Positions 1-50,799 of a DNA stretch of 64,000 bases are shown here, piece after piece (within the stretch, counting starts at the first letter, position 1; each line of letters begins with the position of its first letter). The notes below the pieces were generated by a model that saw only the letters and a program-made list of their open reading frames with translations, had not been told where the DNA came from and searched no databases. This DNA comes from Daedaleopsis sinensis (Eukaryota; Basidiomycota; Agaricomycetes; Polyporales; Polyporaceae). A program made the position numbers and the translations under genes. The DNA lies in assembly GCA_033807695.1 (NCBI GenBank), contig CM066308.1:1612001-1676000 (forward strand), read 5' to 3'.

Positions 1-353
1 CGAGTCCGCTGAACGGTCCTCCGTCTGCAAGACAGTATGACATAGCTTCATGGACCTGTGCGACCATGTACACCTCTGCCTTATGCTTGGCTGGGACCTG
101 ATGGGCTAACCACACAGATACCGCCATGGTGTACTGCATGGGAACCAACCGTAGGAGGGCCATTGACGCATCACGCTCTGTCAACTCTGGCTCCGCCTTC
201 GCATGTAAGTAGCGGTAGATCGGGTAGTATATTCTTGCAGAGTCCACGTATACTGAGTGTCCGTGCCGAGATAGAAGGACAAGACTTCCGTTCTAAACTC
301 GATGTAGGTCTTCTGTGCGTCCACGTACATTGGCAGCGACTTCCAATGCTTGG

Positions 354-8500: not shown

Positions 8501-9039
8501 GCTTGATTCTTGCTGACCAGGGAGACTGGCGTGACAGGGAATGGTGGCTACAAGGTGTTAGCAGTGTCTCAATAATGTATGTCGTATACATAAACGGTAG
8601 ACCTACATTATCGATCGACTTTGATCTGAAGTCCACGAAGTTCGCGTGGCTCCAGTCGGGCCTAATCGATGTGCTTACTCTGTCAGTATGGGCTATACCG
8701 CCCTCCAAGCATTTCATGGGCTTACACTTCTCGGGGAATACCTACCGTTGACAGATTAAACAGTTCCCAGTTCAATATCTTACCTGCTTGGCCGTGCATA
8801 CGTTCACCAGCTTACCTGATTATGACAGCGGTACCCTTTCACTTCCAATAGAACTCACTGATATATGCGGGGACCCTAAACCAACTTCGTTGCAACACAA
8901 AATACACGGTACGCCTACAAGTCCAACGACTCCAAATCGGGGTTGTGCGGGGCTGGGGCTTGGTCCTGGAGGCTACAGCCACACTCTCCTGCTATGCAAT
9001 GAGCAGGACAGGCGGTGAGCACGAAACGAGGGGCGTGAA

Positions 9040-9543: not shown

Positions 9544-9741
9544 CGGGGTGCGATTAGATATCCGGGCCCGGATAGATCCGGGCCGGCTTATGTAATAGTC
9601 ACGTGATACGTCCGTCGTTTCCGTCCAAGTCTCGCGTCCCTCTCTTTACCTCTTACCTCCATCATCTCTCCACCCTTCCCTCCCGTGTCGGGCACATTGC
9701 ATTGCCCGAGACGACGACACCGACACTCAACCACTGCTCGC

Positions 9742-10748: not shown

Positions 10749-10829
10749 GCTGTTGGTTCTCCCAGAAATCGTCGATGGCCCCCATCATCGACGATTTCTG
10801 GCAATACCAACAGCCAATAGGAGCCCAGC
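10749..10829. repeat. palindromic element, copy 2
   Basis: Second copy of the 10397-10484 palindrome, with inner arms CCAGAAATCGTCGATG and CATCATCGACGATTTCTGG and the same CCAACAGCCAATAG outer arm. It ends 121 bp before the A1 start codon, so it may lie in the 5' UTR or core promoter. Confidence 0.65.
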
Positions 10830-10949
10830 ACCTGTCTCAAATAAACCGACGTTAGAGGCAGCCCGCTCACAAAGCCCCCCGCTTTTCTTGTCCAGAAGTC
10901 CACCGCTGCTTGTCTCTTGTGCTTGCTCGATCTCCTGCTGTCCGAGACC

Positions 10950-21304: not shown

Positions 21305-21987
21305 ACAACACATTATCACCGCTCCCTCTCATATCATCCATGGTATTTTCTCGCTCTTGTAGTCCCCCTGTCCACGGTGCTACTCCTCCCCCCTCGCTGG
21401 CTGGTTACGCTCTTGCATGGAGCCCTTCCTTTAGTATGCAGCATCTTCAACAGATAGCATCTCTAGTATTTTTGCATTTTCGAGTAGCTCAACATTGCGT
21501 AGTTGTGACTGTCTAATGATATCAGCGTTGTTGACAAACTTGGATGTGTGATTAAAGATGGCGGCAGAAGAGCAGAGAACTTAGAGCTCAACAGATTATC
21601 CCACCTAGATCTCACGTGATATTCATTTCTGACCGCGCGTGAGAGCATGTTGAACCTTGCTAGGCGCCTGGTTGAACTTGGCTAGGCGCCTGGTTGAACT
21701 TGCTAGGCGCGCTCGGGAACCCAACTCTCTTCTCAATCCACAACCTATCTGTCAACCTCCTAGAGTTCTCTTGCTCGATATCTGCACACCATGTCAAGTC
21801 CATCTATATGGTCATATATGCTCCTCTTGTATGCATGGAGTACAGCTATTCTACTCACCACAAACCTGATACCAGTTCTCATTATAACTGGAGGTATCAG
21901 CATAGTTCGAGGTCTGTCTCGGCCAATACCTTTTATAATTGAGCCGTATGACTGATATCTTTCTCTCTAGATACTATAGGGGACATC
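21305..21987. other. intergenic between D1 and Helitron 1
   Basis: No supported gene. Composition shifts from GC-richer D1 to the AT-richer Helitron. Holds a 22-bp triplicate at 21651-21715. The Helitron 5' terminus should lie here, but I could not identify it. Confidence 0.4.
21651..21715 (+). repeat. 22-bp tandem repeat, three units
   Basis: GTTGAACTTGGCTAGGCGCC and two close variants stand head to tail. Each unit contains the short palindrome GGCGCC. May be part of the Helitron 1 5' end or target-site DNA. Confidence 0.6.
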
Positions 21988-24900: not shown

Positions 24901-25506
24901 GAAGTTAATGAGATTCTATACTTGTCTAATGTACATCGCTGCGTGTCACGAAGCAAAGGATCCAAGGTACCACAGGGAGCCAAAAATAGTGGCATGAATG
25001 AGGTGGATAATCGAGGTTGTACCGACCCTGTCACAAAGGTGTGCAAGGCAAGATTTCCTCGAGACACTTTTCCTACTACTCAGGTTGACCCTGAGACCGG
25101 TGCATTAATAATGAAAAAAGGCGAGGCGTGGCTCAATACGTTTACCCCAGCAGTGTCATATCTTCTGCGATGCAACCATGACGTGACAAGTTTGATGTCT
25201 GGAACTGCTATCAAATCTGTCATTGCATACGTTGCTGACTATATCACAAAGACTCCACTAAAAACTCATGTTATGTTCCAATCAATTCAAAATGTATTTG
25301 ATCGCAACCCAGAGATAGTTGGAAATATCAAAGGTGATAAAAGTAAAGCACGGAGCATCATAACTAAGATGGTCAATGCATTGACTGCTGCCTCTGAGAT
25401 AGGAGGGCCTATGGCTGCTATGTACCTGCTAAAACATCCCGATCATTACACTGGACATCAGTTTCGAACCTGTTACTGGCGTAGCTATGTATTTGAGGTA
25501 ATGTGA
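21988..25506 (+). CDS. Helitron 1 Rep (HUH endonuclease) region, 1172 codons
   Basis: Cleaves and joins single-stranded DNA during rolling-circle transposition. Order seen: a SAP-like segment with CNGC (about 205-253), Cys pairs ACSVCG and CPAC, a DUF6570-type domain (about 400-540: ANGLWIGD, LPPPREELD), then the Helitron-like N/Rep domain with the HUH motif HLH at 867-869 and the two-tyrosine motif YVADY at Y1081 and Y1085. All catalytic residues are present. The frame ends at a TGA (25504-25506) where Helitron 2 has Lys in the matching MKSW; a single base change from AGA or CGA would explain it. Homology continues in the same frame beyond the stop, so the protein is truncated relative to its ancestor. 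Confidence 0.85.
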   Translation: MVTPTPLLHMHGHHIASTTDAFITDVFVADITSSTAMGMTDTLLTSSVPIRIRVSQSTLMRSSFSTYSEPLPSISCDIYVDLNGSLINIGNDVYKAVRMAYFQCVQNLYYSHDYRRKIDCLLSLHITNQRVCVQLTSRSLHQGPVYALYGGAQLPKSNNKSKVWKDSELRPYITRGAVQDAKSYTYSGYILSTIQGNIGDDVALKLPLSILSYRLTKPQMLHIAQCHNIISVNSRLSKENIMRQLIGHQCNGCSQFLSVFTPVDKAKTTKERKQAQRDRIISVPLQKSDMSITSSSFPPNPVDRSLMHETINGFANDLQVTNFLESACSVCGLLTPKSNLYDIASISFDRELLCSDEPVTRVERKSDNEPVRPIPGPVLLSDCNDICPACAESLKDGKKPIDALANGLWIGDVPDELRDLSWTEKMIISRVKHNLCIVKVHVSGMSKMKANVVSHSLPMPKIYNALPPPREELDQVLAFLYIGPNVPTLKDFRRTAMLIRRAKVARALEWLKLNHSDYMDLDISYENLNNYPEDEPPVIVNYTQSMESNKDPESTAVNDAEEDDGTDKGDCPFIVHGLTGSNLERLGHSRPHEITARAVEYFKSGGKVLGIGQAEQPESIYDNPQLYPQMFPWLFPYGLGGLRNVMGYKTVSEEKRKQQLLMYHDKRFQLEPLFPLVALNHEQIKKATTAGYLLADKSKFNEIADRIANMNHRTLTEIVERLKSGPVKPETEEEKACFKVLNDLDHVNYKVQGSITSKKYMRNEIWSLVSYLGAPSWFITFAPADVKHPLALYFADTNETFVPKFRDKDERMNLIANNPVAGARFFKAMVDLFVKHVLGVGLERPGLYGETSGYYGTVEQQGRLTLHLHMLLWIKNSLTPQEVRDKIMDPSSDFQKAMVEYLESAHKGEFIDSDMETVAAELKEINEKNPFRVPPTETLPQPPPDKCSHEEEQPDCTQCIEYKKWWSNYCKEVNEILYLSNVHRCVSRSKGSKVPQGAKNSGMNEVDNRGCTDPVTKVCKARFPRDTFPTTQVDPETGALIMKKGEAWLNTFTPAVSYLLRCNHDVTSLMSGTAIKSVIAYVADYITKTPLKTHVMFQSIQNVFDRNPEIVGNIKGDKSKARSIITKMVNALTAASEIGGPMAAMYLLKHPDHYTGHQFRTCYWRSYVFEVM

Positions 25507-26900
25507 GCATGGGATGACTCTAAGAATATTGCAGAAGATGGCAAAAATACAGTTGTATTAGGTCTAGATCACGAGCAACCTGGTGATGGTAAAACTCAAA
25601 TTGTGCCTATCTCTCATCTCTTGGACTATATATATAGACCACTAGAGCATGAGAATGTGTGTGTATATGATTGGGTGAGAAAGTACCACAAAAGAGCAGT
25701 TCCCAAGTGTTGTAAAAAGTTTTCTGTTCCTCAAAAATTGATGGTAAATGATAGTGATGATGAGTTTGAGAATAACTATACTATTGATGTGTCGCCAGTA
25801 CATGCACATGTAGATGAGGATGATGATAGTGGCTATGAATCTACTTCAAAGAGTATCAACAGACATCCCAGTTTGTGTGGTGGGGGCAGGCCTTCACTAG
25901 CTCAAGAAGAAGAGGAAGATTCTGATGATGAGCTTCTGCTGTCATCTTCTCCAAAGCCTGTCCAAAGCACATGACCCTTCCAGCAGAGGTAGAGGAATCT
26001 GATGATGAACTATTACTTACCACAGCCACGGCTACCACAGCGAAGGCACTCGAGAAAGATTATATCTCTGAGCTAACTCCAAAGTCCAAGTCCCCTTCAT
26101 ACTTTATTTTCCATGCTGAGCACCCCCAGTGCCGCAGTTATGAAGTATGTTTGCAGAATGAAGAGGAATCATTTGTGCCCAACTTTGTTGGAGGAACGCT
26201 GCCACGAAAAGATCAAGGTAGCAGAGAGGAATATTGTATGACAATGCTTACACTATTCAAGCCATAGAGATCAGGGTCAGATTTACGAACAAGTGCTGAG
26301 ATGCTATGGGACAAGGCATTCAGAACCCATCAGTTCACAGACAGGCAGGAGGAGATTATGAGGATTTTCCACATTAGATATGGGTGCAACGATGCCCGGG
26401 ATGACTTTTCAGCCATGCGGAAACAATTGGAGAAAGGGTCCGGGCTCGTACTACATGAACCGTGATGATTTGGATGAGATGGAAGTCCAGCACTATACAT
26501 TTGATACTGCCTCTTCGGTACATGATAGAGAGGATGATATAGTGAATAGCAAGGAGTGGAAAGATATCAGCCAGTCAGAGATAATCTGGTTAGCACATAG
26601 TGGTAAAGCAGAGAATATAATGATGGAAGCAGGATGGATGGATAAAATGCAGCATGATAAGCAAGTCAATCTGTTCAATATTCCAAAGAGATTGACCGTA
26701 CCAGAGGACAAGTCAGCATCAGAATGGCGTCAAGTACTTACTGAAGCTCAGCAGAAGATATTGAAAGCCCGAGATGCAGAAGCTAAGAGCAAACCTCCAA
26801 AGAATACTGCAAATGCACTACCTGTAAATCATGAGATTGACTCCAAGAAACTGGTTGATAAACAATACTTTATGGACAAGAATTTCCAAGTTTACCGACC
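25507..26900 (+). pseudogene. Helitron 1 Rep-helicase linker, broken
   Basis: Continues the transposase coding sequence. After the TGA the frame stays open to 25974 (LLDYIYRPLEHENV, acidic DEDDDSGYES). It then changes frame near 25970, meets a TAG at 26265-26267 where Helitron 2 has Trp (LWRS), and changes frame again near 26447 and near 26895 before joining the helicase frame. The linker holds two repeated acidic DSDDELLL-type segments. These lesions separate the Rep and helicase halves, which are otherwise open. Confidence 0.75.
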
Positions 26901-29758
26901 CTCAGGCCAAGGAACTCATTGAAAATACAGTAGTCAAGTTCAGTTTGAATGAGGCTCAAGAGCGTGTGTTTAGAATTGTAGCCAACCATGTGATAGACTC
27001 TTGTGAAGAACATCTCAAAATGTACCTCAGAGGGATGGCTGGTACCAGAAAATCACAAGTAATCAAAGCATTGACCCACTTCTTTGTTGAGAGAAATGAA
27101 TCCTATAGATTCATGTGTCTGGCTCTAACCGGTTCAGCTGCCTCCCTGATTGGTGGATCTACTTATCATTCTATGCTAGGGTTTAGCAAAGCTGATTCAA
27201 CTGAGTCGGTGGCCAATGTGATGCAAGTGCGAAGTCGACTTATGAATGTGGAGTACATATTCATTGACGAGATCAGCATGCTGGACTGCTTCAGTATGTA
27301 CAATATTTGTGCGAAAATGTGTGCTGCTCTCAAGAATGATGGAACTCCATTTGGTGGTATAAATATTATTTGTGCCGGAGATTTTGCTCAATTGCCACCA
27401 GCAGTCCAAGCAAAGCCACTATATTCACACGAAGTCGGAAGAGTTATTCACAAAACACATGATCACAAGAAGCAGAAGTCCTCTATTGGTAAGGCACTTT
27501 GGCACCAGTTTACTACAGTAGTTATCCTTAGGGAAAATATGCGGCAGCGGTCACAAAAACCTGAGGATGCAAAGTTGAGAACTGCACTAGAGAATCTGAG
27601 ATATAGAGCATGTACTGAGGCTGATATTAAGCTAATCCAATCACGGGTGGCTGGTAAAGGCAAGAAGCATCCCAAAATCAATCAGCCTAGGTTCAGAAAT
27701 ATATCGGTAATTACCACATATAATTCCTACAGAGATGCTATCAATAGACTGGGCTCTAAGCGATTTGCCAGGGAGAATAACCAGGCATTGCATACATTCT
27801 ACTCTATTGACAAACTAGCATCAGAGTCCGATGACAAGAACCTGCCTAAACATCAGCGCAAGAAGAAGGTCAACCCACACCGTTCTACCAATATTGTCAA
27901 TGAAGAATTGCAGACCCGGCTATGGGATTTATCCCATGAACTTACTGAGCATCATCCCGGGCAGTTGAGTATATGCATTGGACTGCCGGTGATGATCAAA
28001 GTCAATGAAGCTACGGAGTGCTCAGTTACCAATGGTGCAGAAGGAATAGTAGTAGGATGGACATCACGGCCTATCACTGAGGATAAATTTGCATTAGAGA
28101 CGCTTTTTGTCAAGCTCACAGCTGCTCCCACTCCGATAAAACTCCCTGGTCTTCCAGAGAATGTTGTCCCGCTTTCGCATGTAAACAAGAAAGTGAAGTG
28201 CAAACTCCCCAATGGTATGCTACTAGAAATAAACCGTGACCAAGTACCGGTAGTACCCAACTTTGCTATGACAGACTTTGCATCACAGGGACGTACAAGG
28301 CCCAATAATGTGTGTGACCTGCAGAATTGTCAAACACACCAGTCTGTATACACTTGCTTGTCACGGGGTTCAACTCTTGAGGGAACTATCATTGTCCAGT
28401 CATTTGACAGCGGGAAATTGACAGGAGGTATTGCAGGCTCATTGAGGCAAGAGTTTAGAGAGCTAGAGTTGCTGGATGAAATCACCAAAATGCGGTACCT
28501 TGGTACTATATCACCCGAAGTATCGGGAATTACAAGAAATGAACTTATTCATTCTTTCCGCCAATGGAAAGGTGAAAAGTTTGTACCCAAGACTATCCAC
28601 AGTGCTCTGAAGTGGACTGCTAGTGATCCTTTCCCAATTCAAAAGGCACCCGAAGATACTCCCTGGACTTTGGTGAAAATTTCCAAAGACCAGTCATCCG
28701 GCAAGGCAGACAGCGGCACCAAAGAGAAAGTTGAAAAGCCCCAAGTCAAAAGGGATAGGATTGCATTTGTATCCGCACAGGGGTCACAAGCATTACAGAC
28801 TGTCAGCAATGTTACAAGAACTAATGCTACTAAGCGTAAGCGGGATGAGGAGACTGAGATTGAACAGACCACAAAGCCTCAGCCAGCTAAGAGAATCAAA
28901 GTAACCAAACCTCCAGCAGGCAAGATGTTTGCAGGCTTTCCATGGGATTCTGTCAATCACAGTTGTGCATATGATAGTCTGCTTACTGTGTTGCTCACCC
29001 TGTATACTGACTGCCGTGAGGCATGGATACATCACATGCCAGAGCAAAGTCAAATTCTCACGGACTTAGGTGTATTGTTTGATGGTACTCTCCCGGACAA
29101 CAAGTCAATGACTTTGCAGAGAGCACGGGATACATTGAGAAATAGATTGGCTGTGTCACATCCTGACCTAGGACCTCGGGGGAGCGAGCCTACTGATATA
29201 TATCTCTTATTAGAGAACATTATCAAGATTGACATCCCTATTCTACAGCAGTGCTACAAATGCCGAGCATGTGACCATGATGGCCCTGCTAATAGCAAAG
29301 CTGAAGCAGTATGGATTTGTGATGACTATGTGTGGAAAAATAGTCCAGCCACATCCAGTAGATATCAAGGGAAAACAGTCACACAATGGATCAGTGCTTT
29401 GCTCTCCCAGAAATCTGAGAAGAAATGCCCACAATGCAAGCGTCAAATGCACAGGTCATTATCTTATACCGACTCACCTAATATTATAGCTATTCGTGCA
29501 CAGCAGAAAATAATAGTGGAGTCTCAGATTGTATGGCCTGATATTGACCAGATGTACCGGCTGTGTGGTATAATCTACTTTACTCCTTCTCACTTTGTCT
29601 GCAGGTTTATTGACAAGTCAGGAGATGTCTGGTACCACGATGGTGCAGAAAATGATGGGAAGGTTCTGTACTACGGTAATATTGTCAACTGGTCAGGGAA
29701 AAAATTGCAGGAGGCCGGTAAGTATAAGATGAGCATTCTACTGTACACTAAGCTTTAG
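26831..29758 (+). CDS. Helitron 1 PIF1-like helicase fused to USP-like cysteine protease domain, 975 codons
   Basis: Residues about 30-560 form a superfamily 1 PIF1-like helicase that would unwind DNA at transposition: Walker B FIDEISML (D146, E147), ICAGDFAQLPPA, NMRQ, and the C-terminal TDFASQGRTRPN and YTCLSRGSTLEG. The Walker A reads RGMAGTRKS; Helitron 2 has GGMAGTGKS, so both R67 and R73 replace Gly and ATP binding is probably lost. Residues about 700-975 look like a ubiquitin-specific-protease fold: HSCAYDSLL with candidate nucleophile C712, zinc-type Cys pairs (CYKC, CPQC), PSHFVCRF with H921, and YHDG with D937. The first 20 or so codons belong to another frame of the linker; the true domain starts near QAKELIEN. 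Confidence 0.82.
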   Translation: MRLTPRNWLINNTLWTRISKFTDPQAKELIENTVVKFSLNEAQERVFRIVANHVIDSCEEHLKMYLRGMAGTRKSQVIKALTHFFVERNESYRFMCLALTGSAASLIGGSTYHSMLGFSKADSTESVANVMQVRSRLMNVEYIFIDEISMLDCFSMYNICAKMCAALKNDGTPFGGINIICAGDFAQLPPAVQAKPLYSHEVGRVIHKTHDHKKQKSSIGKALWHQFTTVVILRENMRQRSQKPEDAKLRTALENLRYRACTEADIKLIQSRVAGKGKKHPKINQPRFRNISVITTYNSYRDAINRLGSKRFARENNQALHTFYSIDKLASESDDKNLPKHQRKKKVNPHRSTNIVNEELQTRLWDLSHELTEHHPGQLSICIGLPVMIKVNEATECSVTNGAEGIVVGWTSRPITEDKFALETLFVKLTAAPTPIKLPGLPENVVPLSHVNKKVKCKLPNGMLLEINRDQVPVVPNFAMTDFASQGRTRPNNVCDLQNCQTHQSVYTCLSRGSTLEGTIIVQSFDSGKLTGGIAGSLRQEFRELELLDEITKMRYLGTISPEVSGITRNELIHSFRQWKGEKFVPKTIHSALKWTASDPFPIQKAPEDTPWTLVKISKDQSSGKADSGTKEKVEKPQVKRDRIAFVSAQGSQALQTVSNVTRTNATKRKRDEETEIEQTTKPQPAKRIKVTKPPAGKMFAGFPWDSVNHSCAYDSLLTVLLTLYTDCREAWIHHMPEQSQILTDLGVLFDGTLPDNKSMTLQRARDTLRNRLAVSHPDLGPRGSEPTDIYLLLENIIKIDIPILQQCYKCRACDHDGPANSKAEAVWICDDYVWKNSPATSSRYQGKTVTQWISALLSQKSEKKCPQCKRQMHRSLSYTDSPNIIAIRAQQKIIVESQIVWPDIDQMYRLCGIIYFTPSHFVCRFIDKSGDVWYHDGAENDGKVLYYGNIVNWSGKKLQEAGKYKMSILLYTKL

Positions 29759-35609: not shown

Positions 35610-38600
35610 CTACTGCGGGTCGTTCATAACACGAGAATATTTACACAACAAGTGCTCGACCATGACATCATCGAAATGAATCAAGTGTCTGTCCTCTGCA
35701 GTCATTCTAGAACCGATGTAGTCCGCGACATCCCGGAAAGCATCCTGCACCACGTCAAGCACTACAATCTTGTTAGCCACCTGATTAGCTGTACATAGCC
35801 CCGCCAGAGAGCCCATTTGATTCTTGTGTACGATATATGCAACCCACTGACAATACCAGCGTACGATAGATCTCCTGCCAGTAACTATGCTCCAAGTTTC
35901 CCCACCAATGGCAAGCGGGGCTGTAGACGAGATTGACCAGAATATATGTCTGGGCGAACCACCCGTTCGGTCAACCAGTTCACACAACGCATGAACGGTA
36001 TCTTTCCCTTGAACTCTTTTCGGAACTTGCTCCAGTCTGGCTCAGAGTCAAAGTACACAGGGGCGAACAGAACTCCGTCCAGATGTTCGTATTGAGGGGT
36101 TCCGTAGCATCGCACATTGTAGAAGCGATCTAACGAAGCTTTGTCAAGCGGGTTATACCCCTGGAGATCTCGAAAGGCATCCCAGTCGCTTTCCTCCGCG
36201 AAGAAGAACTCCTCGCATTCCAGCAACGCAGCCGAGTTGAAAAGCAGCGCACGAGATATGATCCAGCTCGGAAACGCTCCCGGCAGGTCGGTGTAGAATT
36301 CGTTGAATGCTCCTTGCTTAGAAGTCAACTTGGCGTGCGAAGGAGCGAGCTCGCGGAAAGGCGAATAGAAGTCGAAGTTAGACACCTTTGACCAGTGGAA
36401 TTAGCTCGAGTACGAAATCCAGCAACTCCGAGTACATTCTCCAAGATGTCGAGGCTGTCGAATATATTGACAATGGCAGTATAAAGAATGACACACTGCC
36501 GCGACCACCAGAGAGCATATATATTGCGGTGTTGGGTTTTCGAGACGAGCAGGCAGGATGTAAGCCGACGATGTGTCGGCGCACTCTGCTCCAAGCTAAC
36601 AGGCACGAGATATATTTGCAGACTGCTATGAGTAGACAATACATGGGGGCATGTACGATACGTACCTGCAGACTGCTATGAGTAGACAATAGAGCAGGAT
36701 GCAGGCGTGATGAGCATGTTATGTATCGTACGGAATAGGAAGGTAGTGGCTGTGTAATGTAAGCGCACAGAGCGAATAAGGGGACGAGCGATAGTAGGGG
36801 TTACACAGGAGGAACGTCATACGCGGTGTGATGTGAGGAAGACAGTCTTCTGAGCGAATTGGAGCGATCACATGGTTGGCAACCATGAGATATATATCTC
36901 GAGTCAACCGATGAATCCACTCTTTGTGAGAGTCCAGGGAGGTAGAGTCTGCGGTGATGAGGTCCGTCATAGCATAGACCTCCGGAGCGCATTCTTGCAT
37001 GAGCCACGTCCAAGCGGCTACGCTGGCAGTCATGATGCGCCGCCTGTCGACAGCGAGAGCCAGAGAGTAGACATCAAGAGCCTTGTGTCTGCCTTGATGA
37101 GACACCCACATCCTGGAAATATTTTCAGCGAACTCCTTCGAAGTTCTGTTTGATGCACGGAATGAGTCCAGAAACTTCTCCACCGAGAGATAATCTGACG
37201 ACGACGACTGCGCGGAAGATCTGTCTGTATATGTTCGAGGAACGAAGACAGAGCAGGCAGCGCGAAAGCATCCAGGGCGGACTGAAAGTCTACAGGTTGT
37301 GTTAATAATATATGATTATTTTATATGTGTTATACTCACGAGGCACCTGTCACTGAGAAGCAATGTTGCCAGCATATTCCACCGAAAGACCCCATGAATG
37401 GTTCAAAGTGGAGTCATTGGTGGAAGCAAACGTGTTGTCCCGCTCTGCCTGGTCTAGATCCAGCTGAATGTTGAATGCTGTTTCATCGAACTCGGGATAC
37501 AGCTCTAGGTCGATCAGGTTGCAGTCCGTCCGGTGCTGCCTGAATATAATGGCCATATATTAGATATACAGTATGTAGTGTTACGCGTGGCTTCGCAGAC
37601 GGTAACGAGACGTACAGGGTTCATCATATAACCTGTGTACATCGTCCTATCACTGCTCTCCCCATCTCCAGAAGATGATGGACCCGCAATCCTTTCAAGT
37701 GAGCTTGGAGATCCACGTCGCCAGTTCCCTGTACAGCACTAAGTATGCAATGACGGACTCCCAATTATATGTGACATACCTTTCTTGCGCTTATGCGATC
37801 TGCCTCGCTCACCCTCATCGGTTTCAGACGGAACAGGAGACACAAGTCTCACAGCCGTCCTTCGAGTACGACGACCAGCTGTCGGAGGGGTGTGTTCCGC
37901 TGAATCCTGCTCTGGCATAGGCCGCCGCATAGCTGCTTTACGTTTGCGTCCTTGATTCCCTAATGAGCATACATTGAGTATATGCGGCACGCACCACAAA
38001 AGAGTATATGTACCTGTCCTGCTCCCTGAGGCAACTTGCCCCCCTTCTGCATTACCCGCGGTCTCTTGAAGAGGAAGGTCTACATACGGTACATTCAGTC
38101 ATATAGTCATATAGCAAGGTATATTTGCGGAGACAACGTACGAGGCTTGTAGTGCCGGTGGTTATACAACATATATTGACCATGGTGCTGACAGGCCTGT
38201 TGCCATGACGCAAGGCTATTCTTGCGCTTTTCGAACATAGCGGGCTCTGGACGGTGTTCCCATACCTTAGGATGAACGCGATTACGGTCTTGATCCTCAA
38301 CATAGAACACGGAGCGAAGGGCGTCGAGATCAAGGCGGATTTCGAGACTCGGTGCGACTTGCCAATGCATGTACGCGAGTTGCAAGCATTGGGCTTGGTA
38401 GTACCACTGCAGAAAGCCATCCCGGTCCGTTATTGCTGGTGCCGACGACAGCCACGTCGAGCAGTTCAAATTCGAAGGGAGGACGGCGTCAAACTCAGGG
38501 TGGATCATTTCCGGTGCCATGTAGATGAGCTCTCCGGTCGGTGTCACCGCGAAAGCGAGAGATGAAGAGCCGTCTAACATGGGTCTGGACAGGTAGAGAA

Positions 38601-40028
38601 TAAGAGCCTAGCGATAATTGTCAGGGTGCGGGTCATCACCGGAGATATCGACCGGAGGATAACCTCCATATCGGAAGAGGCCCAAGAAGAAGAAAACCAC
38701 CAGATCGCGGAGCTCTGTAGAAACAAACACCAATGGTGAGCAGTATATTCCTGGATATACATGTATATATGCTCACCCACTGCGATACTAGCTCCCCTAG
38801 CATGAAATAGCCCGGTATAACGCAAGGGCGCAGGGTACTGTTAGCTATCATGCAAGACAGTCCTGCGCTATCATTGTCGTCTCCGTGCACCTCGCCGAAA
38901 GCCCCGAGTTGAGCAGCTAAGGACTCTGTCCGTTGAGACAGACATTAGTAAATTTGTGTGTATATGCAGGGGCAAACCACTGACCGACGCCATCAGAGGC
39001 CTTGACCGGTGACACAATGTTGAGTTGCATCGCTGGGAACGCGCAATTACTGTGGTGGCTGAGTGGGGGTAGGTTGATTAGGTCTGCTTGAGTTTGCAAC
39101 AATTCGTATAAGGCACTGGGTGCCGCTCGAAGCCCGGCCATGCCGATAAGAGCACCGACCTGTGAATATATACTGTGAGTGGCAAGTATACACCCACCTC
39201 TGCAATCGTTTGACACAATATATGGTGTTCGCGAGGCCTTTCCCGTTGGCCCGGTCATGTTGCGCTGGACTTGATACAACTGTCCTATCGGGTAGCAGCG
39301 GGGAGCGTTGTTGACGTTCTTAGCCATGGAACTACGTTCCCAACGAATCCCGTCGTGCCACTTCTCGTCGGTCCCCACGTACGCCTTGTTCGAGCCTCGA
39401 GTGCCGGGTTCACCCAGGGTCTCATCGCGTACTTGGTTGATGAGACTCTTCAGCTCGGCAGATATATATCCTCTAGAAATTGAATGGTCATATTGATATA
39501 CCATCTCATATATATATGCCTACCAGTGACCACTCACTCTGGAGGTAGATAACCTAGGCATTCATCGTTCAAAGGGTTCCTGTCTCCGGACATGTCTCTG
39601 CCGAAGACAAAGTCGCCTTTGCCGAGGACGAGATAACCTTGTGCGAGCATGTTAGAAAGTTACCTATGACATCCAAAGTAGGACTAACCGGTATCATTGA
39701 CCCCTTCTTGAGTGCCCGGAGGAAGCTTCATGTCTTTCGCGAAATCGAGGAAGTACCGCTTCATCTTCTCGGGTGCTAGGTCCATGGGGGCAATATAGAC
39801 GAAGTGCACGTCCCACATGAGCGAGTAGGGGATGCCCGTTAACCCGGACAAAGCATGGCAGCCTGGGATCTCTGCCTTTCAAGATTACAGGGTCGCTATC
39901 TGGTACAGAAGGCGCTGGTACAGCTGGCGCTGCATCAAATATTGTGTTCATTTTGTCAGCACCGCAGACCTATATAGGTTAGAGAACCACTGACCCTTTG
40001 CTTGGCTACGAGTGCGTCGTTCAGACAT
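35610..40028 (-). pseudogene. A2: inactivated paralogue of A1 (candidate dioxygenase)
   Basis: Exon 1 (MSERRTRSQAK) joins by a phase-1 intron to PVILKGRDPRLPCFVRV, matching A1. Downstream blocks match too: YQVQRNMTGPTG, the HxD region (VHGDDND), FRYGGYPP, a basic GRRTRRTAVRL segment, AVDRRRIMTASVAAW, and the C-terminal VEHLLCKYSR. Lesions: a one-base frameshift near 39808 just after HPLLAHV; an in-frame TAG at 38610-38608 where A1 has Tyr after the conserved Arg; and Tyr at 38670-38668 in place of the distal iron-binding His of A1. The Tyr change alone should remove dioxygenase activity. The large C-terminal domain (36719-37183 and 35610-36385) is still largely open, so it may have outlived the catalytic part. 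Confidence 0.72.
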
Positions 40029-40116
40029 TACGGCTTGGCAGTGCGCACATCAGTACGAGTACAAATATGACAGTGCCGTTAGCCACACCTAGTATAAGGC
40101 GGGCACTGGCGGGCAG

Positions 40117-40142
40117 TCTGCAGGGTGATTACACCCCACACG
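40117..40142. promoter_or_regulatory. ATTA-core palindrome 1 (upstream of A2)
   Basis: TCTGCAGGGTG, ATTA, CACCCCACACG. It lies 89 bp upstream of the A2 start codon. Member of the eight-copy set. Confidence 0.65.
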
Positions 40143-40146
40143 ACAT

Positions 40147-40440
40147 TGAGAGAGACGGCTATGACCATATATTGCCACACAATGTTGTCTGGCAATATAA
40201 GGCTATATTGACTGGGGAGAGTCAGCAGGACCATGACAGCACTCCCGGGCATATATAGGACCAGGGAGAGGAGTGAGGGTGCTGCTGGTCACATATGCAG
40301 CCAGGGAGAGAAGCGACAGAGACGGCTATGACTATATATTGCCGCACAATGTCGACGCCGCACAAACTATGACATCCATCGACATCGTCCGGCAATATAA
40401 GGCTATATTACCAGAGGACTGTCAGAAGGAGCATGACTAC
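40147..40440. repeat. two hairpin-bearing repeat units
   Basis: Two copies of a unit starting AGAGACGGCTATGAC (about 40150 and 40319). Each contains an inverted repeat, TATATTGCC facing GGCAATATA, with a variable middle (short in the first, longer with GACATC repeats in the second). Upstream of A2. Function unknown; could be a MITE pair. Confidence 0.6.
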
Positions 40441-40760
40441 TTCAGGCTTACGTAGACAATGATCCTGAGTACTGACCATGGAGGTGACGAAGTGAATGAC
40501 ACGTTTGTACCACATTTTGGTTTGCCAAGCTCAAGGAAGAGAACAGGTTGGGGGAATCAATCTATTCAGTCCACCACGAACTGTCTACTGCACTGTACTA
40601 GATAGGCATGCATATAATGGCTTAACTTACCATACTGACCCCTGTATTTCAGTTACGAAAACAGGGATCGAGCTACAGTGTTCATAATGATGAACGTCCA
40701 CGAAGGCCAGTGGGCAGTGGTCATGACCGGTATACGGAGACATTGATGAGGTTCTTCTTG

Positions 40761-40788
40761 CTCTGCAGGGGGATTACCCCCCACACAG
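40761..40788. promoter_or_regulatory. ATTA-core palindrome 2 (between A2 and Z4)
   Basis: CTCTGCAGGGGG, ATTA, CCCCCCACACAG. About 495 bp upstream of the likely Z4 start and 730 bp upstream of A2. Confidence 0.65.
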
Positions 40789-41040
40789 CTTTCCTGAGGA
40801 GGCCGAGGTTCGGTGATCCTTGTTGCGATAGGTGTGGTTGAAGGTTGAAGTGCATGCTGTACTTAGCACTGTGTCTAAGTTCATCGGCAGTCCCCGAGAA
40901 GCATACACAGCCACTTCCTAAAAGAGATCAGCTTGATCAGGTCGGCGACAAGCGCTGTATCCACACCTCTTCAGTTTTCCTATAACTTTGCTCGACCTCA
41001 ATCCCAGGGCTGTCTAGCCTTGCCACTGGAGCTGAGCAGT

Positions 41041-41067
41041 CGTGTGGGGTGTAATCACCCTACACAC
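41041..41067. promoter_or_regulatory. ATTA-core palindrome 3 (upstream of Z4)
   Basis: CGTGTGGGGTG, TAAT (ATTA on the other strand), CACCCTACACAC. About 215 bp upstream of the likely Z4 start. Confidence 0.65.
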
Positions 41068-41282
41068 TGAATATATAGCCCGTATTGAAGAGATTGCACG
41101 GTGTATACAGGTGAGAGACATTGTTGAGAGATGATATCACAGAGCACAACTGATTTCGAAACCTTTGTATTCCACTCCATGATGCGATTGGCTGATATAT
41201 GACACAACATGAACTGTCCCGCCTTATATATGATATAATGGTCGATGCCTGGGGTCTGGCTATATACGCACACTCTAGAACA

Positions 41283-42188
41283 TGAAGGCTGAAGATTTCG
41301 ACAACTTACAACTCGACAATGTACACCCTGAAATAGACACAGTCAAGGTTGTGAGGCTGATGAGGAGGATATTCAGGAGAGCGAGGATGAAAACCAGTAT
41401 ATTAGCCCAGATACAACCTCTGAATCGGTAAATGTGTGGTACTATTCGAGGTGGATGACTACTCATTATCGTAGACCAACCACAGAGCCTCTGAGCCAAG
41501 CTGGCGAGGTTATATACTTCAACTGCCACTCAATATAGACATGGATCGCTTGCCTAGTGGCTGCATTGAAGATCTACAGAAGATTCGCATGCAACCTTGC
41601 TCTCACTGCAACCAGAAAAGGCGTCAGTGCATCCAAACTGAGTCGAGTTATCAAACTTGGAAGTGCAGGGAATGTTTTCATGGAAACAGACCCAGATGTG
41701 ACTGGATGGAATGTAAGACTCTTCAGTCGTCAGTCACGAACTGAATTAATATATTGTGTAGGATGCAAGAGCCTTGGCATGGGGACTACACCACGAGTAA
41801 CGCCTACATCGCGAAGGACAACAGTGACGATGAAGATCGACAAGGAAACATCACCTGCAGCTCCCAACACCCCAGATATATACTGCAGTGCTAGGACTCT
41901 TCGAGCGGAAAGACGTAACCGTATACCACAGCTACCCACAGGCACCGGTCTCGAACAGCCGATAGAGCATGTCCAACCTATCGCAGAGGCATCTTCCTCT
42001 GCCATTAAAGCCCCCACGATCTGCGATTCCCAGTTCGCCAAACTTGCACATGCGAGGACTACCGACTCAGGAGCATGGACATGTTGGAGGCTATATTAAG
42101 AAATGTACACGAACTGAGAGCAGATATGGAGCATGTGGAGAGTATGGTTGGCAAAGGCAAAGGCAGAGCTCCGAAGCTCGTCAGTTAG
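41283..42188 (+). CDS. Z4: Zn(II)2Cys6-like family protein (possibly broken)
   Basis: Core motif CSHCNQKRRQC then WKCREC and RCDW: C-X2-C-X6-C-X11-C-X2-C-X7-C, the spacing of fungal Zn(II)2Cys6 DNA-binding clusters, with a basic NQKRRQ loop as in Gal4-type domains. Upstream it reads an acidic stretch (EADEEDIQESEDENQY), a probable intron (GTAAATG...TCGTAG near 41430-41475), and a segment aligning with Z1-Z3 (GYILQLPLNIDMDRLP). An intron follows the motif at the family position. The probable C-terminus is MLEAILRNVHELRADMEHV, helical as in Z2 and Z3, ending at 42188. The exons do not join in a single frame as I read them, so a frameshift or an extra intron is likely. The 3' end overlaps C2 antisense. 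Confidence 0.5.
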
Positions 42189-43218
42189 AAATCGATGTGT
42201 AACAGAGCGAGGAGGGATTGTATCTTCTACTGAGAGATCTGGATGCTCTTGATGCCATGACCCTCTATATAGGTGGTATATAAGCGGATCTGTCCCTGTC
42301 GGGGTGTGCTTCGAGGCTAGTGGAATGTCGGCAGGGACTGGGAGGTAGGGTCGCAAGTGGGGGAGAGATGCGAACGTGCGCCGGCAGTGCTCGTTCCCGG
42401 ACCACAAGAATATAACCGGTATATGCCTCGCTATCACCACCGGCAGGAGCTCTGTCCACCGACAGAGATCGGTATGGACTACGACACCCACTCGAGTACC
42501 GTGGATGAAGTTCGAGATGTCGGAAGCCTGTATAGCATTGATCCAGGAAGCAGGGACGTTCTGATTGTGCAGCATTCGTATCCAGCGGGGAACTGCCGTC
42601 GGGCCACTGTCGTGCTGAACCTCCCATATCGCTATGATCATAGAACACCTTGCCGCTAGTAGGTACAGAGACCTTTGAGCGAGAATGGCCGCTCGCAATG
42701 CAGCTCCGTGGGTGGCATGGGACTCGTCGTACTTGTAGCTCGAGGGATAGAACCAGTCCACTCAGGTTTGGACTTGTCTTGCCAATGGTGACACGACATT
42801 GTCTCAAAGAGAGTGTTAACGATCCAGAGAAGACCCCTCTCTAACTCAGTCCACTTCGACAGTACCGCTCTCTGGAGCATGTAGCGGGTGCCGTCCTTGA
42901 TTATTGGGAGGCAGTCCCCCTCGATATACAGCCAACTAAGGAGCACGTCGTTGCAGGTGTTGGTTCTCAGAGCGAATGCTGTCTCGGGGAGGGAGTCAAT
43001 GGCGTAGTCGGGTCGTGACAAGTCGGCGGGAGGGTCGTATATTTCAGTGAGGCGGGGGGGAGGGCGATGATGAGGTACAACGATTCGCTGGGGGACGTTT
43101 GCGATGGTATATATCTCTTTTGTCGGACCGCAGAAGGTGTATACGTCATCCTGCCTGTATATAGCACTTAGCGTTAAACTGCGTGCAGGGTGCAAGAACA
43201 TCTCACTCACCAAGCCAT
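42096..43218 (-). pseudogene. C2: N-terminal fragment of a family C gene
   Basis: Starts MAW by a tiny exon (43218-43211), intron 43210-43155 (GTGAGTG...ATACAG), then QDDVYTFCGPTKEIYTIANV, DSLPETAFALRTNTCNDVLL and WTELERGLLWIVNTLFE as in C1. A frame change near 42760 leads to FYPSSYKYDES, AARCSMIIAIWEV and GTRVGVVV. Similarity to C1 ends at about residue 330 of 849, near PLIYHLYRGSW. The rest of the gene is absent; its place is taken by Z4 on the opposite strand. Two ATTA-core palindromes lie 171 and 260 bp upstream of its start. Confidence 0.68.
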
Positions 43219-43388
43219 GATATCTCCCCTTATAGAGTTAAAAGACGATATAACGTCGGCAGGCTGTGCGCAAGGTATATATGTTAGTACTGTGGGTAAG
43301 ATATACCTGCAATATTTAAAGCTTACAATACTTCACAATCGTTTGCGAGAGCAAGCCAGAACAGTATTGCAGGGAATGCGGGAAGGAT

Positions 43389-43417
43389 CTCTGCCTGGTG
43401 ATTACACCGAACAAGAG
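43389..43417. promoter_or_regulatory. ATTA-core palindrome 4 (upstream of C2)
   Basis: CTCTGCCTGGTG, ATTA, CACCGAACAAGAG. 171 bp upstream of the C2 start. Confidence 0.6.
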
Positions 43418-43477
43418 AGGTTGCTGTTGCTGCTTCTCGGCTCGTATTTGACCAAGTATGTTGTGGCCAGGGAGGAT

Positions 43478-43506
43478 CTCTGCCTGGTGATTACACCGCA
43501 CAAGAG
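43478..43506. promoter_or_regulatory. ATTA-core palindrome 5 (upstream of C2)
   Basis: CTCTGCCTGGTG, ATTA, CACCGCACAAGAG. 260 bp upstream of the C2 start. Confidence 0.6.
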
Positions 43507-43853
43507 ATGTTGCAGTTGCTGCTGTGGTGGCTGCGATATGACCGCAGTACAGAGAGAGAGAGAGCAGTGAGCGACAGATGAGAGATGAGGGAGAAGAGCA
43601 GAGAGTATGATCTGAGGGGGCTTGTTAGATCCCCCTCAGATCGTAGATCCGAGAAACTCGGATCTATGTGAGCGTGACGTCATACGGCCTGAGCCCGAAG
43701 CTGTCCCATTTAGGGTTGCTGAGCCAAGGAACCGGCGTCTATCACAGTGTCCTCTTCTAATAGTTACCTCTATTCACTGTCGCTCCTCGCACACAGTAGT
43801 CTTACTCTACACTGTCGACCTTCTCAAACCGAACACCTGATCTGTTTATTGGT

Positions 43854-43881
43854 CTGTGTGAGGGGTAATCCGCTCACAGAG
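43854..43881. promoter_or_regulatory. ATTA-core palindrome 6 (upstream of Z1)
   Basis: CTGTGTGAGGGG, TAAT, CCGCTCACAGAG. 289 bp upstream of the Z1 start codon. Nearly identical to palindromes 7 and 8. Confidence 0.72.
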
Positions 43882-44169
43882 ATGCGTCCTCGATCCAACA
43901 CGTTTAGTCAAGAGAACAAGGTGAGTACAGAACTCAGTGAGTACAGTCAGTATCATCTAGGTAGTATAGCGTACCGTTTGTACCGTATATCCAGTACCTC
44001 GTATCAATGCGCGGCTGCGCTGCACTCTTCAACTAATATACCTCTGCGTTGAATCAAGATTTGAGGTGTATATTGGGGGTTTGAGCTTTTCAGGATGTGA
44101 ACACTGAGTATATACTGACATGCTGGATGGTCCACCACGCGGCCTCCTACAGCCGAACTGCACAATACA

Positions 44170-45446
44170 ATGTCACGGTCAGTATCGCCAGCTGCGAATG
44201 CAGACGACACCCATGCCACGCCCACTGCCCGTCTTCCACTATTTCTGCCCTCAAGTCATTCCCCGTCCCCTTTTGTTCCCAATCCGGCCATCCCTCTTGC
44301 CGACAATCTATTCCCATACTTCCAGCATTGGAATTCGCAATGTCTGAGTGAAGACGATGCGGTCGACACATCACCGTTTCTACAATCAGCAGTCGACAAC
44401 GAGAAAGTTGAACACGAAACCGTCAACGATGCCACTATTGAGACCAGGCACCAAGAAGAACCTGGTACCTTGGAGCCACATAACACATCCACTGCCGACA
44501 GTCGTGACTCGCATTCACTGTCACTTCCTGCCCCCAGTGACTCGTATATACCTGATCTGAACGCAGTGGTCCTCGAAGCCCGCGAGTCTGGCCTTACAGT
44601 ATCCCTCTTTCCTGCGACTTTGGAACCGGAATTCACGACTGTGATGCTGTTTGCAGCCATCGACAAAGTTCGCTCCTCCTCGTGCACGCAGTGCGAGCAA
44701 TCCGGCCAGTCATGCGGCCCTAGCAATCGTTCGACCTGGCGTTGCTACAACTGCTCTCAGTGGCAGAACCCCCGTTGCTCATGGAAGGATGGTAAGTATA
44801 TTAACAGTGCGTTGCCGATTCCTCCCACTCAATATATTGCATATATCACAGCCATGTGGGACTTGGGGTTCCACTCTAAGGTGCCATCGCATCCATATGA
44901 ACTTGCCGACAGACTGGGAGTTCAACCATACCCTCCTGTATGCCATGGTGCCCAACTCGCGACAAAGAACCTGAGGCCAACCAGCGAGGTGCCAACCCCT
45001 CCCCGCACTTGAGATCTCCCTCTTCTACTGTCCTTGCCCCCGTCAATCATCCATCCTCTCCATCCCGTCCGCAAACAACTCCGATTTGTCGTCGAAAACC
45101 AGGCCCTGGACGATCTTCTCTACCGTCCATCTCCACAAGTATCCATGGTGATATGATGGCAGCTTACGCAGCAGAGTTGCACTGTCCTGACCGCCAGGCT
45201 GCAAAACCGGACTCACCGGCCCAGTTTGCCAGCCACATTGAGCTCCAGGGGGAGGAAGCGGTGAGCGGACCAGGGACGATACACCATCCGTTCGCAGGGG
45301 GGAATCAGCAGGACCGGCTGCCTACGGATACCGACCCTCGCAGAGTCAACTTTGACCTGGAGAAGACGCAGCGAGCCCTAGATTCTATCATCATGCTCAG
45401 CTCTCGTCCACCCTTTGACATGCAAGTATTACCAATCACATATTAA
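44170..45446 (+). CDS. Z1: Zn(II)2Cys6-like family protein, probable frameshift in last exon
   Basis: Exon 1 (44170-44791) encodes an acidic, Ser/Thr/Pro-rich N-terminus, then SYIPDLNAVVLEARESGLTV and the Cys motif CTQCEQSGQSC, WRCYNC, RCSW (C-X2-C-X6-C-X9-C-X2-C-X7-C). The intron 44792-44851 sits right after the motif at the same phase as in Z2 and Z3. Exon 2 reads MWDLGFHSKVPSHPYELAD and LGVQPYPP, aligning with Z3, and stops at 45010-45012. Family similarity resumes in the next frame (MMAAYAAELHCPDRQ) to 45446, so there is a frameshift or a missed intron near 44950-45010. If real, the protein loses its C-terminal part but keeps the Cys cluster. Probably a DNA-binding regulator by motif only. 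Confidence 0.62.
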
Positions 45447-46190
45447 CAAGATCTTGCATTATCTGATCTCCGTTCGGCAGGACCATCTGTACTGTTGTAC
45501 ATCTCGTATATATCTCCCTCACTGACGGGGCAGTTCGTGATACAAATATATAACTCATGCTAGAGGCGTGTCAAGCCCCACAGTGGTCAGTACGGGGCCC
45601 TTTACCCAGGGTGTGAGCCAATGCGATCTGAGGTCGCGCAAAGGGAGATTGTGCTCTGGCATATATGTGCTGTCATGTGAGGTCTAGGCGACGGTGGTTA
45701 TTCGCAATATACATGCATAACTGAGTCCCACTGTAGCTCTCTCTCGCTGCGTGGGCTGCCAAAGTTTCGGAACACACTGCCTGACGACACATGAGACTCA
45801 TGGGGGGGCACTATGGTAAGTCTAAGAGCATTCGACACTGTGTTCTTGAGACTGTGCATCGAAACCTCACAGCCCAAGTGGGACACTCAAACTCACTCAG
45901 CACTCAGCTGTCGTCGCCGTAGTATGCCGGTGCATGTGGAGAGTGATCAGCGCACTATATTGCAGTCCCACACAGTAGTTAAGCAAGCTTAAGTCTTCGA
46001 GCAGTCTCATAATTCGTGCATATACAAGATTGCAGATTCATAAGTCGTACTTGTACAAGATGACAGTATATTTGCTCTTGGCCTAGCCTCTGTAAGCCCC
46101 AATAGAACTGATGGTATATATTAGCGAGATAAGTTCCATATATATAGTTGTATCGTTCACTTACCTCGTAACGGATTTCTACAACATTGC
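45447..46190. other. intergenic between the 3' ends of Z1 and Z2
   Basis: No supported gene. AT-rich, with many short TATATA/ATATAT stretches as elsewhere between 32 and 50 kb. Confidence 0.5.
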
Positions 46191-47320
46191 TTAGTCAAAC
46201 TTGGCACGTTTCAAACCGACCATACCCTCGTGAGCGGGGAGTCTCTGGCGTTTGAGAGATACAGTATGTTCGGCAGCCAGGAGAGCCGTTCGTTCCACGG
46301 TAACGAGGTGCTCCAGGAGGGCGACAATGTGTAGCCCGGTCGACTCCGTCATGCTCGAACCTCGAGGATCTCTGGAGTTAGAACGGGTAGTCTTGGACGA
46401 TGCAGCTTGATTGGTACTAGGAGGGGCTGGGGTGAGATACAGACGTGTGGGTAAAGGGGATAGGCTGCTGTCGGAGGACGACGAGCTTCCAGGGGAGGTG
46501 CGGAGCCCTTTGAAAGGTACACGCTCCACTTCCTTACCCTTGCCCTTCACTCTAGCGCGAGAGCCTGCCGCACCAGTGTTTGCTGCCGCGCCAGTGTGTG
46601 ATATATCCAACCGGCGGGTCGTAGATTGGGTCCTCCGGCCGCTCTGCTCCACTTCAGGCTGCCCCGAGATCGTCGACTGGCTTACCTGGGTTGCTTTTGA
46701 AAGCCAGTCGGAGCCGGGTGGGTAGGGCATCAATCCAGCGGTCATCTCTGAGTTGACGGCAATTGTAGGCGGTGTGGAGTTATATCCATACTGTACCATG
46801 TCTGTAACAGATAATATATGAGCTATATTGAACATTACACAACGTAATGTATATGGATATTACCGTCCTGCCAGGAGCAATGGCCTTGTAGGTTCTCCGA
46901 GCACGGGTAGCACTTCCAAGTCGATCGTGCAGTAGGTCCGCATTGCGCGCCCACCTGAATACACTCGCGGCACGCATACCCGCGCACGTTGATGATATGG
47001 AGCACCATCTGGACGTCGGCGACCTTGGGATCAAGCATTGCGGGCATGACGCATGCGGTTAACCCGCACCTTTGAGCGTCACGCACGAGTTTCTTCACCG
47101 GGGGAATATACGATGTCTCGGGAGCGGGCTCGAGATCGATTAGGATGTCTTCTTTGAGTACCGACTCATCCCCCGGAGTAGTCGCTCGCGCCCCCTGCTG
47201 TTCCGGAACATGCAGCCCGGTGGAGGGTGCCGTCATCCGTTCAGACTCAATCGGGTGAAAGGGATCCGAGTCCAGCTGGTCAATCTCCTGCGAGTTGGGT
47301 TTGATGTGAAAAGGCGACAT
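46191..47320 (-). CDS. Z2: intact Zn(II)2Cys6-like family protein, 355 aa
   Basis: Two exons, complement(46191..46801, 46864..47320), give 355 residues without a break. N-terminal 70 residues are acidic; SYIPPVKKLVRDAQRCGLT precedes the Cys cluster: C117, C120, C127, C137, C140, C148 (X2, X6, X9, X2, X7), within the range of Gal4-type Zn(II)2Cys6 domains, though the loop lacks the usual row of basic residues and the domain is not at the N-terminus. Then come Ser/Thr-rich sequence with a basic KGKGKEVE, and a C-terminal helical segment (TGLHIVALLEHLVTV) ending in LKRAKFD. Divergent from Z3; palindromes 7 and 8 lie between them. Best candidate for a functional regulator of the set. Confidence 0.72.
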
Positions 47321-47443
47321 CCCAGGACGTCGTTCGTTGTTCTACGATAATATATATTGCTGTCAGCAAAGGATATTCAATGTATAACTGGACATACCTG
47401 TGTATAGTAGCGCCTCCTGGTGGTCGTGCCATTGCCTGTGAGT

Positions 47444-47471
47444 CTCTGCGAGCGGATTACCCCTCGCACAG
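47444..47471. promoter_or_regulatory. ATTA-core palindrome 7 (upstream of Z2)
   Basis: CTCTGCGAGCGG, ATTA, CCCCTCGCACAG. 124 bp upstream of the Z2 start. Exactly the reverse complement of palindrome 8 over 28 bp. Confidence 0.75.
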
Positions 47472-47788
47472 CTCTGTACCGCCGGTGATGGTAGTTCTCC
47501 GGCACGGAGGGGGCCAGAAGAGATAGAATGCGAAACGAGAGGGTGAAAAGACAGCCACAGGCTCCTAACACACCTCTATTTGGTAGTAACTCACACGTGA
47601 CGTCACACGTCATGATGCGCTTATATCATGCAAGTGTGGGTACGTCACATGATCTCATTTGGTACTCAGTGCCTGTGAGGCGTCTCTCTCGGTCTTGGCT
47701 GTTCGTCCTCTCACACTCTGTCCTCCACATCCTCAACCGACCCTCAAATACTGTCCGCGTTTGCTGGAGAGCGGCTAGTAAGATAAAG

Positions 47789-47816
47789 CTGTGCGAGGGG
47801 TAATCCGCTCGCAGAG
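47789..47816. promoter_or_regulatory. ATTA-core palindrome 8 (upstream of Z3)
   Basis: CTGTGCGAGGGG, TAAT, CCGCTCGCAGAG. 312 bp upstream of the Z3 start. Together with palindrome 7 it forms a perfect inverted pair in the divergent Z2/Z3 intergenic region. Confidence 0.75.
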
Positions 47817-48127: not shown

Positions 48128-48829
48128 ATGGAAGCCACTGAGGTAGCAAACAAGTCCATGGAGATGTCACTCTCGGTCGGTCTCTCCCTAGCCGGGGAAC
48201 AAGCTCAAGCCAATGGTACCTTGCAAGTGTCTCCCGCTGACATGAACAGAGACGAAAATGCCGCCCCCGAGAAGGAGTCTCCTAGGACTGAGGCCGAACC
48301 CGCCCCCGAGAACGAGTGCCCCACGCCTGAGGGCGAAGATGCCCCTGAGACAGAGGCTGAATCCGCCCCCGAGAACGAGTCCCCCAGGCCAGAGGCTGAA
48401 CCCGCACCTGGAGCGCCTGAAGCCGCTAAACCCGCACCACTCCCGGCTTCCTCAACCGCTGCACCCGTGTCCTCGCCAGCTTCCCCTCAGGAAGACATGG
48501 ATGCGGATGACGCCCCTGAACAGGTTTCCCCTAACTCGCCGGCCGCCCCTGACAACAGCTACATGCCGGATCTTCTCCCTATGGTACAGGCAGCTCGCGC
48601 TCAGGGCCACATCGTACGAGTATTCCCCGCAACTCTGAAACCTTCCGAGGCGTCCGTCGAGCTATTCACGGACCTGGACGAGGTTCGCGGAGGCTCTTGC
48701 GTCCAATGCGAGAGAGATTCCAAGACATCATCGGGACACAACACCTGGAGGTGCTATAACTGTTTGCAGAAGCACCAACAGGTCTGCTCTTGGCAGACAG
48801 GTATGACCTTCACGTTCACGTCAATATAA

Positions 48830-48872
<43 letters not shown>

Positions 48873-49517
48873 TACGTAGACATGCAGAACTTGGGGTACT
48901 CGTCTAGAACCCCCACGCGAAACTATGATGTTGCGGAGGCGGTTGGGGTGATACCCTTTCCGCTGGGATCGAAATGGCATCCGCCGTTCACTGAGGCTGT
49001 CCAGAGCGCGAAACGAAAGACTGGGGCTACTAAAAAGCCTACCTCGCGCTCGAAAGGGTTGCGCATCACGACATCCCCGAAAGCCAAAGTGTTGTCGAGC
49101 ACGCCTCCGATTTCGCATTCACCACGCAAGCGGCAGACACCAGCGCAGAAGCCACTCGCATCGTCGTCTCGCACTCGCAAGCATGGGTTCACACCGGTGT
49201 ACGCTGCAGACCTAGCAGGCCCTGCCGAAATTGTGGAGGCCAAAGAAGAGGAGGCGATGGATGTCTTTGTCGAAGGAAACGTGGGCGACAATGCTGCGGA
49301 TAGCAACAAAGCGGGTGGGGGTTTGATCACGGAGGCTACAGGCCAAAGGATTGTGGCCCTTCTCAAGCAGTTTGTGAACATCAACTCTCAGCGCATCGCG
49401 ACGGATGAAGCTCTGGTGGAGATTAACCGGAGGTGGCTTGCGACCGACGAGTCTCTGCTTGAGCTGAAACGGTCCAAGCACAACCTCGAGGAGAGAGAGG
49501 AGGATCATGATACCTGA
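48128..49517 (+). CDS. Z3: Zn(II)2Cys6-like family protein lacking one Cys, 436 aa
   Basis: Two exons (48128-48800, 48880-49517) give 436 residues. The N-terminal 140 residues are Pro/Ala/Glu-rich with a repeated unit (ENESPRPEAEPAP and variants). After SYMPDLLPMVQAARAQGHIV comes CVQCERDSKT, WRCYNC, VCSW. Only 14 residues separate Cys 2 and Cys 4 instead of 16, and the third Cys is missing, so a full Zn2 cluster cannot form. Exon 2 reads LGYSSRTPTRNYDVAEAVGV, a basic middle part, GFTPVYAADLA and a helical end (TGQRIVALLKQFVNINSQ) ending in LELKRSKHNL. The intron contains a 40-bp TA microsatellite. The open frame suggests it is expressed, possibly without normal DNA binding. Confidence 0.72.
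48832..48871. repeat. TA microsatellite in the Z3 intron
   Basis: About 19 tandem TA units directly before the acceptor ACTACGTAG. Length is likely variable between strains and may affect splicing. Confidence 0.9.
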
Positions 49518-50799
49518 GGTGCGTGCTAATTAGAAAACTGATATAGAATGTTAACTAATATTGCTCTTATACAGGTGACAGTGACCTGTGAACACTCATA
49601 TATATCTGCAATAGATGGACTGTTAATGTTCTCCGCCAGCAGTGTAGTGATAATGATGATGTGTATCCTTCCCACTCTGTATGTACTCCATGTCGTGGTG
49701 CACCCTGTACAATGTAGTCTCTTGCCCTGATTGAGATGTTGTATCCTTGGACTCGGCGCCGCTCTCGTCTTGTTATAACCCTCGAACTTGCGCTCGTAGT
49801 CACTATATACGTATATATAATATATGTTGCGGTTATACTATACCAGGCCCGCTCAGACATTAAACTGCGGATGAAATAGCATATAGCATATATATATATG
49901 CACAATACATACGCGCCTCAACTCAGCTGCCGCTCCTGTCTTGCCTGCATTCGCTGAGCTTGCCGGCTTCCCAAGTACTCGCCCGAGGGCCAGCGACCCC
50001 TGACCTGCAGGCTCCGAGTGCACACATGCCTCAAGGACGGCGCGTGTCACGAACTGGAACATATCAAACTGTCCTGGCCCCTGCCGCTGGTCGGCGTACT
50101 GCTCTGCGAGGCATGATATACCATATATTCCATTGTATAAAGCAGCCTGTATTGAGGACGGTGTGCTTGCCATGTAGTGCGTGATCCGCGGTAGTGCAGG
50201 CTGGAGGGTCTGCTGCAACCCGAACTATAAGTGTTATATTCAGTATAGAAGTGGGAGCATATTTATAAGCACAGGCTAGTGTTCAGTGTAGTTGAATGCG
50301 ATACCGATATAGTATTAGAGGCTGCTAATACTATATCAGTAGACCCTCCATTTACAACTGATATATAACAAGCATATATGTTACACAAGTGTAACAGGTA
50401 TAACACAGTTGCAACTTACCGGTTGCAGGGGGGCGTCTGTCTAACCCTAAAGCGGTGCACCCTAACCCTACGCTAGGGTTCAGGGGGTAACAAATTTTGT
50501 TACTGTGGATTACATCATCATTACAAAAGAGTAAGCTGAGCTCAAAATATATTCCCACGGGGGTCAATGTCCGTTACGGCGCTTAGGTAGAATCGTCAAC
50601 ATAAAGAACGATTGATTCGTTACCTCATCAATCGTAATCGATGATTGGTCGAATGCATGTGCCGACTACCTTTGGCAGATCCTAAGAGCTTTGCGCATTC
50701 GATATGTCAACTCCAGGACAATTATGTGGTGGACGTCTTTGAGAAAGTAGCTCCATATCTCTCTCTCTCTTGACAATTTGCACTCTATGCTCCCAATGT
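49518..50799. other. intergenic between Z3 and the D3 fragment
   Basis: No supported gene. Contains AT-rich runs near 49810 and 49890, telomere-like motifs near 50470 and otherwise unique sequence. Confidence 0.45.
50451..50488 (-). repeat. telomere-like motif, hairpin form (CCCTAA type)
   Basis: CCCTAACCCTA followed after two bases by CTAGGGTTCAGGG. The two halves can pair (AACCCTA with TAGGGTT). Only about two units; a trace. Confidence 0.4.

What the first reader, a model, noticed from the sequence alone, without database searches (positions are those of the whole stretch)
40117..47816. Eight ATTA-core palindromes upstream of every gene from A2 to Z3
A 26-29 bp imperfect palindrome (arms near CTSTGYGNGGNG, core ATTA) occurs at 40117, 40761, 41041, 43389, 43478, 43854, 47444 and 47789. 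Each of A2, Z4, C2, Z1, Z2 and Z3 has at least one copy 75-495 bp upstream of its start; C2 and Z4 have two. I saw none in coding DNA or in cassette 1. Arms vary in a way that keeps symmetry (GAGCGG/CCCCTC, GGGTG/CACCC), as expected for a site bound by a dimer. This looks like an undescribed local regulon.
Basis: partly seen in the sequence, partly recalled or inferred. Interest (0 to 1): 0.87.

Follow-up and report, generated by a model that had tools for sequence, protein, structure and literature searches.

The report
Private promoter palindromes of giant Helitrons
Six predicted genes in this fungal gene cluster carry the same short palindrome in front of them, it matches exactly at only two places in the whole genome, and it is likely the docking site of a regulator encoded by a giant jumping-gene family whose other copies carry different palindromes in front of the same gene.

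Summary

The setting changes the reading. A, C and a RepHel gene recur at constant spacing in 14 of 26 A loci: a giant multi-gene Helitron-like family, of which the window holds two copies. "None in cassette 1" misleads: cassette 1 and sister copies carry a different palindrome, TCGTCGATG-N8-CATCGACGA, between C and A; C3 and C10 copies carry others. Arms change symmetrically.

The parts
40116..40143 (-). ATTA-core palindrome upstream of A2
   Evidence: GTAATC reads toward A2
40761..40788 (-). [not shown]
41040..41067 (+). [not shown]
   Evidence: donor-like site 42 nt downstream
43389..43417 (-). ATTA-core palindrome upstream of C2
   Evidence: donor-like site 81 nt downstream
43478..43506 (-). 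ATTA-core palindrome upstream of C2, tandem duplicate of 43389
43854..43881 (+). [not shown]
   Evidence: donor-like site 38 nt downstream
47444..47471 (-). [not shown]
   Evidence: donor-like site 45 nt downstream
47789..47816 (+). [not shown]
   Evidence: donor-like sites 42 and 62 nt downstream
35631..39951 (-). A2, element gene A (multi-exon, unknown function; one stop in a matched stretch)
41283..42199 (+). [not shown]
42267..43219 (-). C2, copy of element gene C matching only the first third or so of C1
44170..45443 (+). [not shown]
46191..47320 (-). [not shown]
48128..49529 (+). [not shown]
5985..8447 (-). C1, element gene C of cassette 1
8984..9011 (.). cassette 1 palindrome gamma, centre ATGCAATG; a relative in the C11:480k copy
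9684..9713 (.). cassette 1 palindrome beta (GTGTCGGGCA-N8-TGCCCGAGAC)
10762..10801 (.). cassette 1 palindrome alpha, 16-base arms (TCGTCGATG-N8-CATCGACGA inside), about 150 bp before the predicted A1 start
10948..15860 (+). A1, element gene A of cassette 1; start predicted
21952..29755 (+). RepHel of cassette 1: Helitron_like_N and PIF1 (separate open frames)

Best explanation
[not shown]
Confidence: 0.5

Rival explanations
1. The sites are promoter elements of the Helitron family, but the dimer that binds them is another protein: a host factor or the element's A, B or C protein.
For: Copies with no Z found beside C also carry a palindrome between C and A; A and C are the genes shared by the copies.
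Confidence: 0.25
2. The palindromes work as folded nucleic acid: RNA hairpins in 5' leaders, or single-strand hairpins used during rolling-circle transposition (single-strand-origin-like).
For: Alpha-type arms reach 23 perfect pairs (C10) and C6 has a 36-base perfect palindrome; arms covary; sense RNA folds at -11 to -23 kcal/mol, stronger than antisense in 10 of 10; orientation is constant.
Confidence: 0.13
3. They are relics copied along when promoters were duplicated, with no present function.
For: Cassette 2 is decayed; the C2 pair is a plain tandem duplicate.
Confidence: 0.08
4. They are ends of a MITE or Helitron, or recombination sites.
For: Helitron 3' ends carry a hairpin before CTRR (PMC4289320); a CTRR lies within 20 nt on one side of 4 of 10 sites.
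Against: 6 of 10 sites have no CTRR there, and a four-letter degenerate word is common by chance; no dispersed copies; sites are tied to gene starts.
Confidence: 0.04

Closest known systems
VANDAL transposons and their VANC anti-silencing proteins (Arabidopsis; PMC10398659 abstract start and passages seen; PMC5735166 search listing only)
   Same: Transposon-encoded protein tied to short non-coding motifs in its own family; related families carry different motifs
   Different: VANDALs are Mutator-like (recalled), motifs are tandem repeats, VANC induces loss of silent marks; binding is shown there, not here
HELPO1 Helitrons of Pleurotus ostreatus with captured genes capA-capF (PMC4289320; section 7 and passages read)
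   Same: Basidiomycete Helitron carrying extra genes of unknown function
   Different: There 1-4 cap genes lie downstream of RepHel, HELPO1.1 copies about 7 kb; here C and A lie upstream at constant spacing and cassette 1 spans more than 20 kb. That paper reports no promoter motif hits in its BLAST searches
Gal4-class Zn2Cys6 regulators (Gal4, Ppr1, Leu3, Pho7)
   Same: Cysteine spacing, a short helix in each CxxC half of the model, palindromic GC-rich half-sites
   Different: No Pfam Zn_clus call; domain is internal, not N-terminal; half-sites are GGKG rather than strictly CGG (CGG recalled)

Membership tests
Zn2Cys6 (Zn_clus) regulators | C-x2-C-x6-C-x5-12-C-x2-C-x6-8-C (spacing recalled) | tested here: met
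   [not shown]
Zn2Cys6 (Zn_clus) regulators | Pfam Zn_clus call | tested here: not met
   [not shown]
Zn2Cys6 (Zn_clus) regulators | Binuclear-cluster fold | tested here: inconclusive
   [not shown]
Zn2Cys6 (Zn_clus) regulators | Binds palindromic DNA as a dimer | not testable with these tools
   Needs protein
Helitron | HUH Rep (Helitron_like_N) plus PIF1-type helicase | tested here: met
   PF14214 E 2.8e-33; PF05970 E 1.6e-24
Helitron | 5' TC, 3' hairpin and CTRR ends, AT target, no target-site duplication | not tested
VANDAL/VANC | Mutator-type transposase | tested here: inconclusive
   No Mutator-type Pfam call among the A, B, C, Z and RepHel frames scanned; not every frame of the element was scanned; the family carries RepHel
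VANDAL/VANC | VANC homologue | not tested
   No VANC sequence was fetched or compared

The most novel reading that the evidence does not exclude
A giant Helitron family runs its own private gene-control circuit: an on-board Gal4-like regulator and lineage-specific palindromes in front of its genes that change in step by symmetric substitution, so that each lineage controls only its own copies (and possibly senses its own copy number); cassette 2 is a lineage where this circuit expanded to four Z paralogues and outlived the transposon.
Probability: 0.33. Interest if true: 0.8.

Novelty: new variant of a known kind. Interest (0 to 1): 0.62.

Why it matters
Transposon-encoded sequence-specific regulators with fast-changing target motifs are known to me from few systems (VANC in plants). 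If this holds, it would add rolling-circle elements, fungi and a Gal4-like fold, with a natural series in one genome: several palindrome types between the same two genes in sister copies. That makes co-evolution of a regulator and its site directly testable.

Full report
WHAT IS THERE. The window is C9:1612001-1676000 of an unnamed 51.6-Mb assembly; the two named relatives of its C protein come from Earliella scabrosa and Ganoderma boninense, so a polypore-like fungus is likely. All eight sites are present. A pattern covering all of them, TGYNNGSKGATTACMCCNNRCA with at most one mismatch, gives 11 hits in the genome: the eight, two at C8:2867909 and C8:2868267, and one C1 site with a mismatch; the reversed pattern gives none. 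The 28-base pattern with three mismatches gives 8 hits, control 0; 30 shuffles of the window give 0.

MECHANISM AND LIMITS. The most likely working is that Z dimers bind the palindromes near the start sites of Z, A and C and set their expression together, with self-control of Z. Sister lineages would use other palindromes. The weak step is the binder: two searches list no Z beside C in alpha-bearing copies (a weak interrupted Z-like stretch lies at window 279-488), and in the C3 and C10 copies the C3-type palindrome was not found before Z. A host protein, another element protein, or a hairpin role in rolling-circle transposition remain open.

NOVELTY. Seven literature searches listed no description of such sites; the closest are VANC/VANDAL (passages of PMC10398659) and the HELPO1 cap genes (PMC4289320, one section).

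Noticed in passing
[not shown]
   Followed up: partly
[not shown]
   Followed up: no
[not shown]
   Followed up: no
window 28889-29644 and 58293-59030: C-terminal part of RepHel reads SCAYDS-type motifs by eye, resembling Helitron-borne cysteine-protease (tegument-type) domains (passages of PMC9741609); no Pfam call above cut-off for it.
   Followed up: partly
[not shown]
   Followed up: no
window 279-488: Weak Z-like stretch (36% identity, one stop) on the minus strand near the left edge.
   Followed up: no
C10:240918-243277 and about C10:1680300-1681500: A closely similar gene with a related cysteine cluster sits near two element copies; a separate mobile gene or a distant Z.
   Followed up: no
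C5:3622806-3716131: GGRGATTACACC recurs eight times, four spacings near 11.8 kb, taken by spacing to be the rDNA array.
   Followed up: no
C6:3563552: 36-base perfect palindrome with an alpha-like half-site but no 8-base spacer.
   Followed up: partly
proteins P0007-P0009: Three relatives of C carry a precomputed Pfam label PF28437 that the local Pfam copy did not return for the two of them rescanned.
   Followed up: partly
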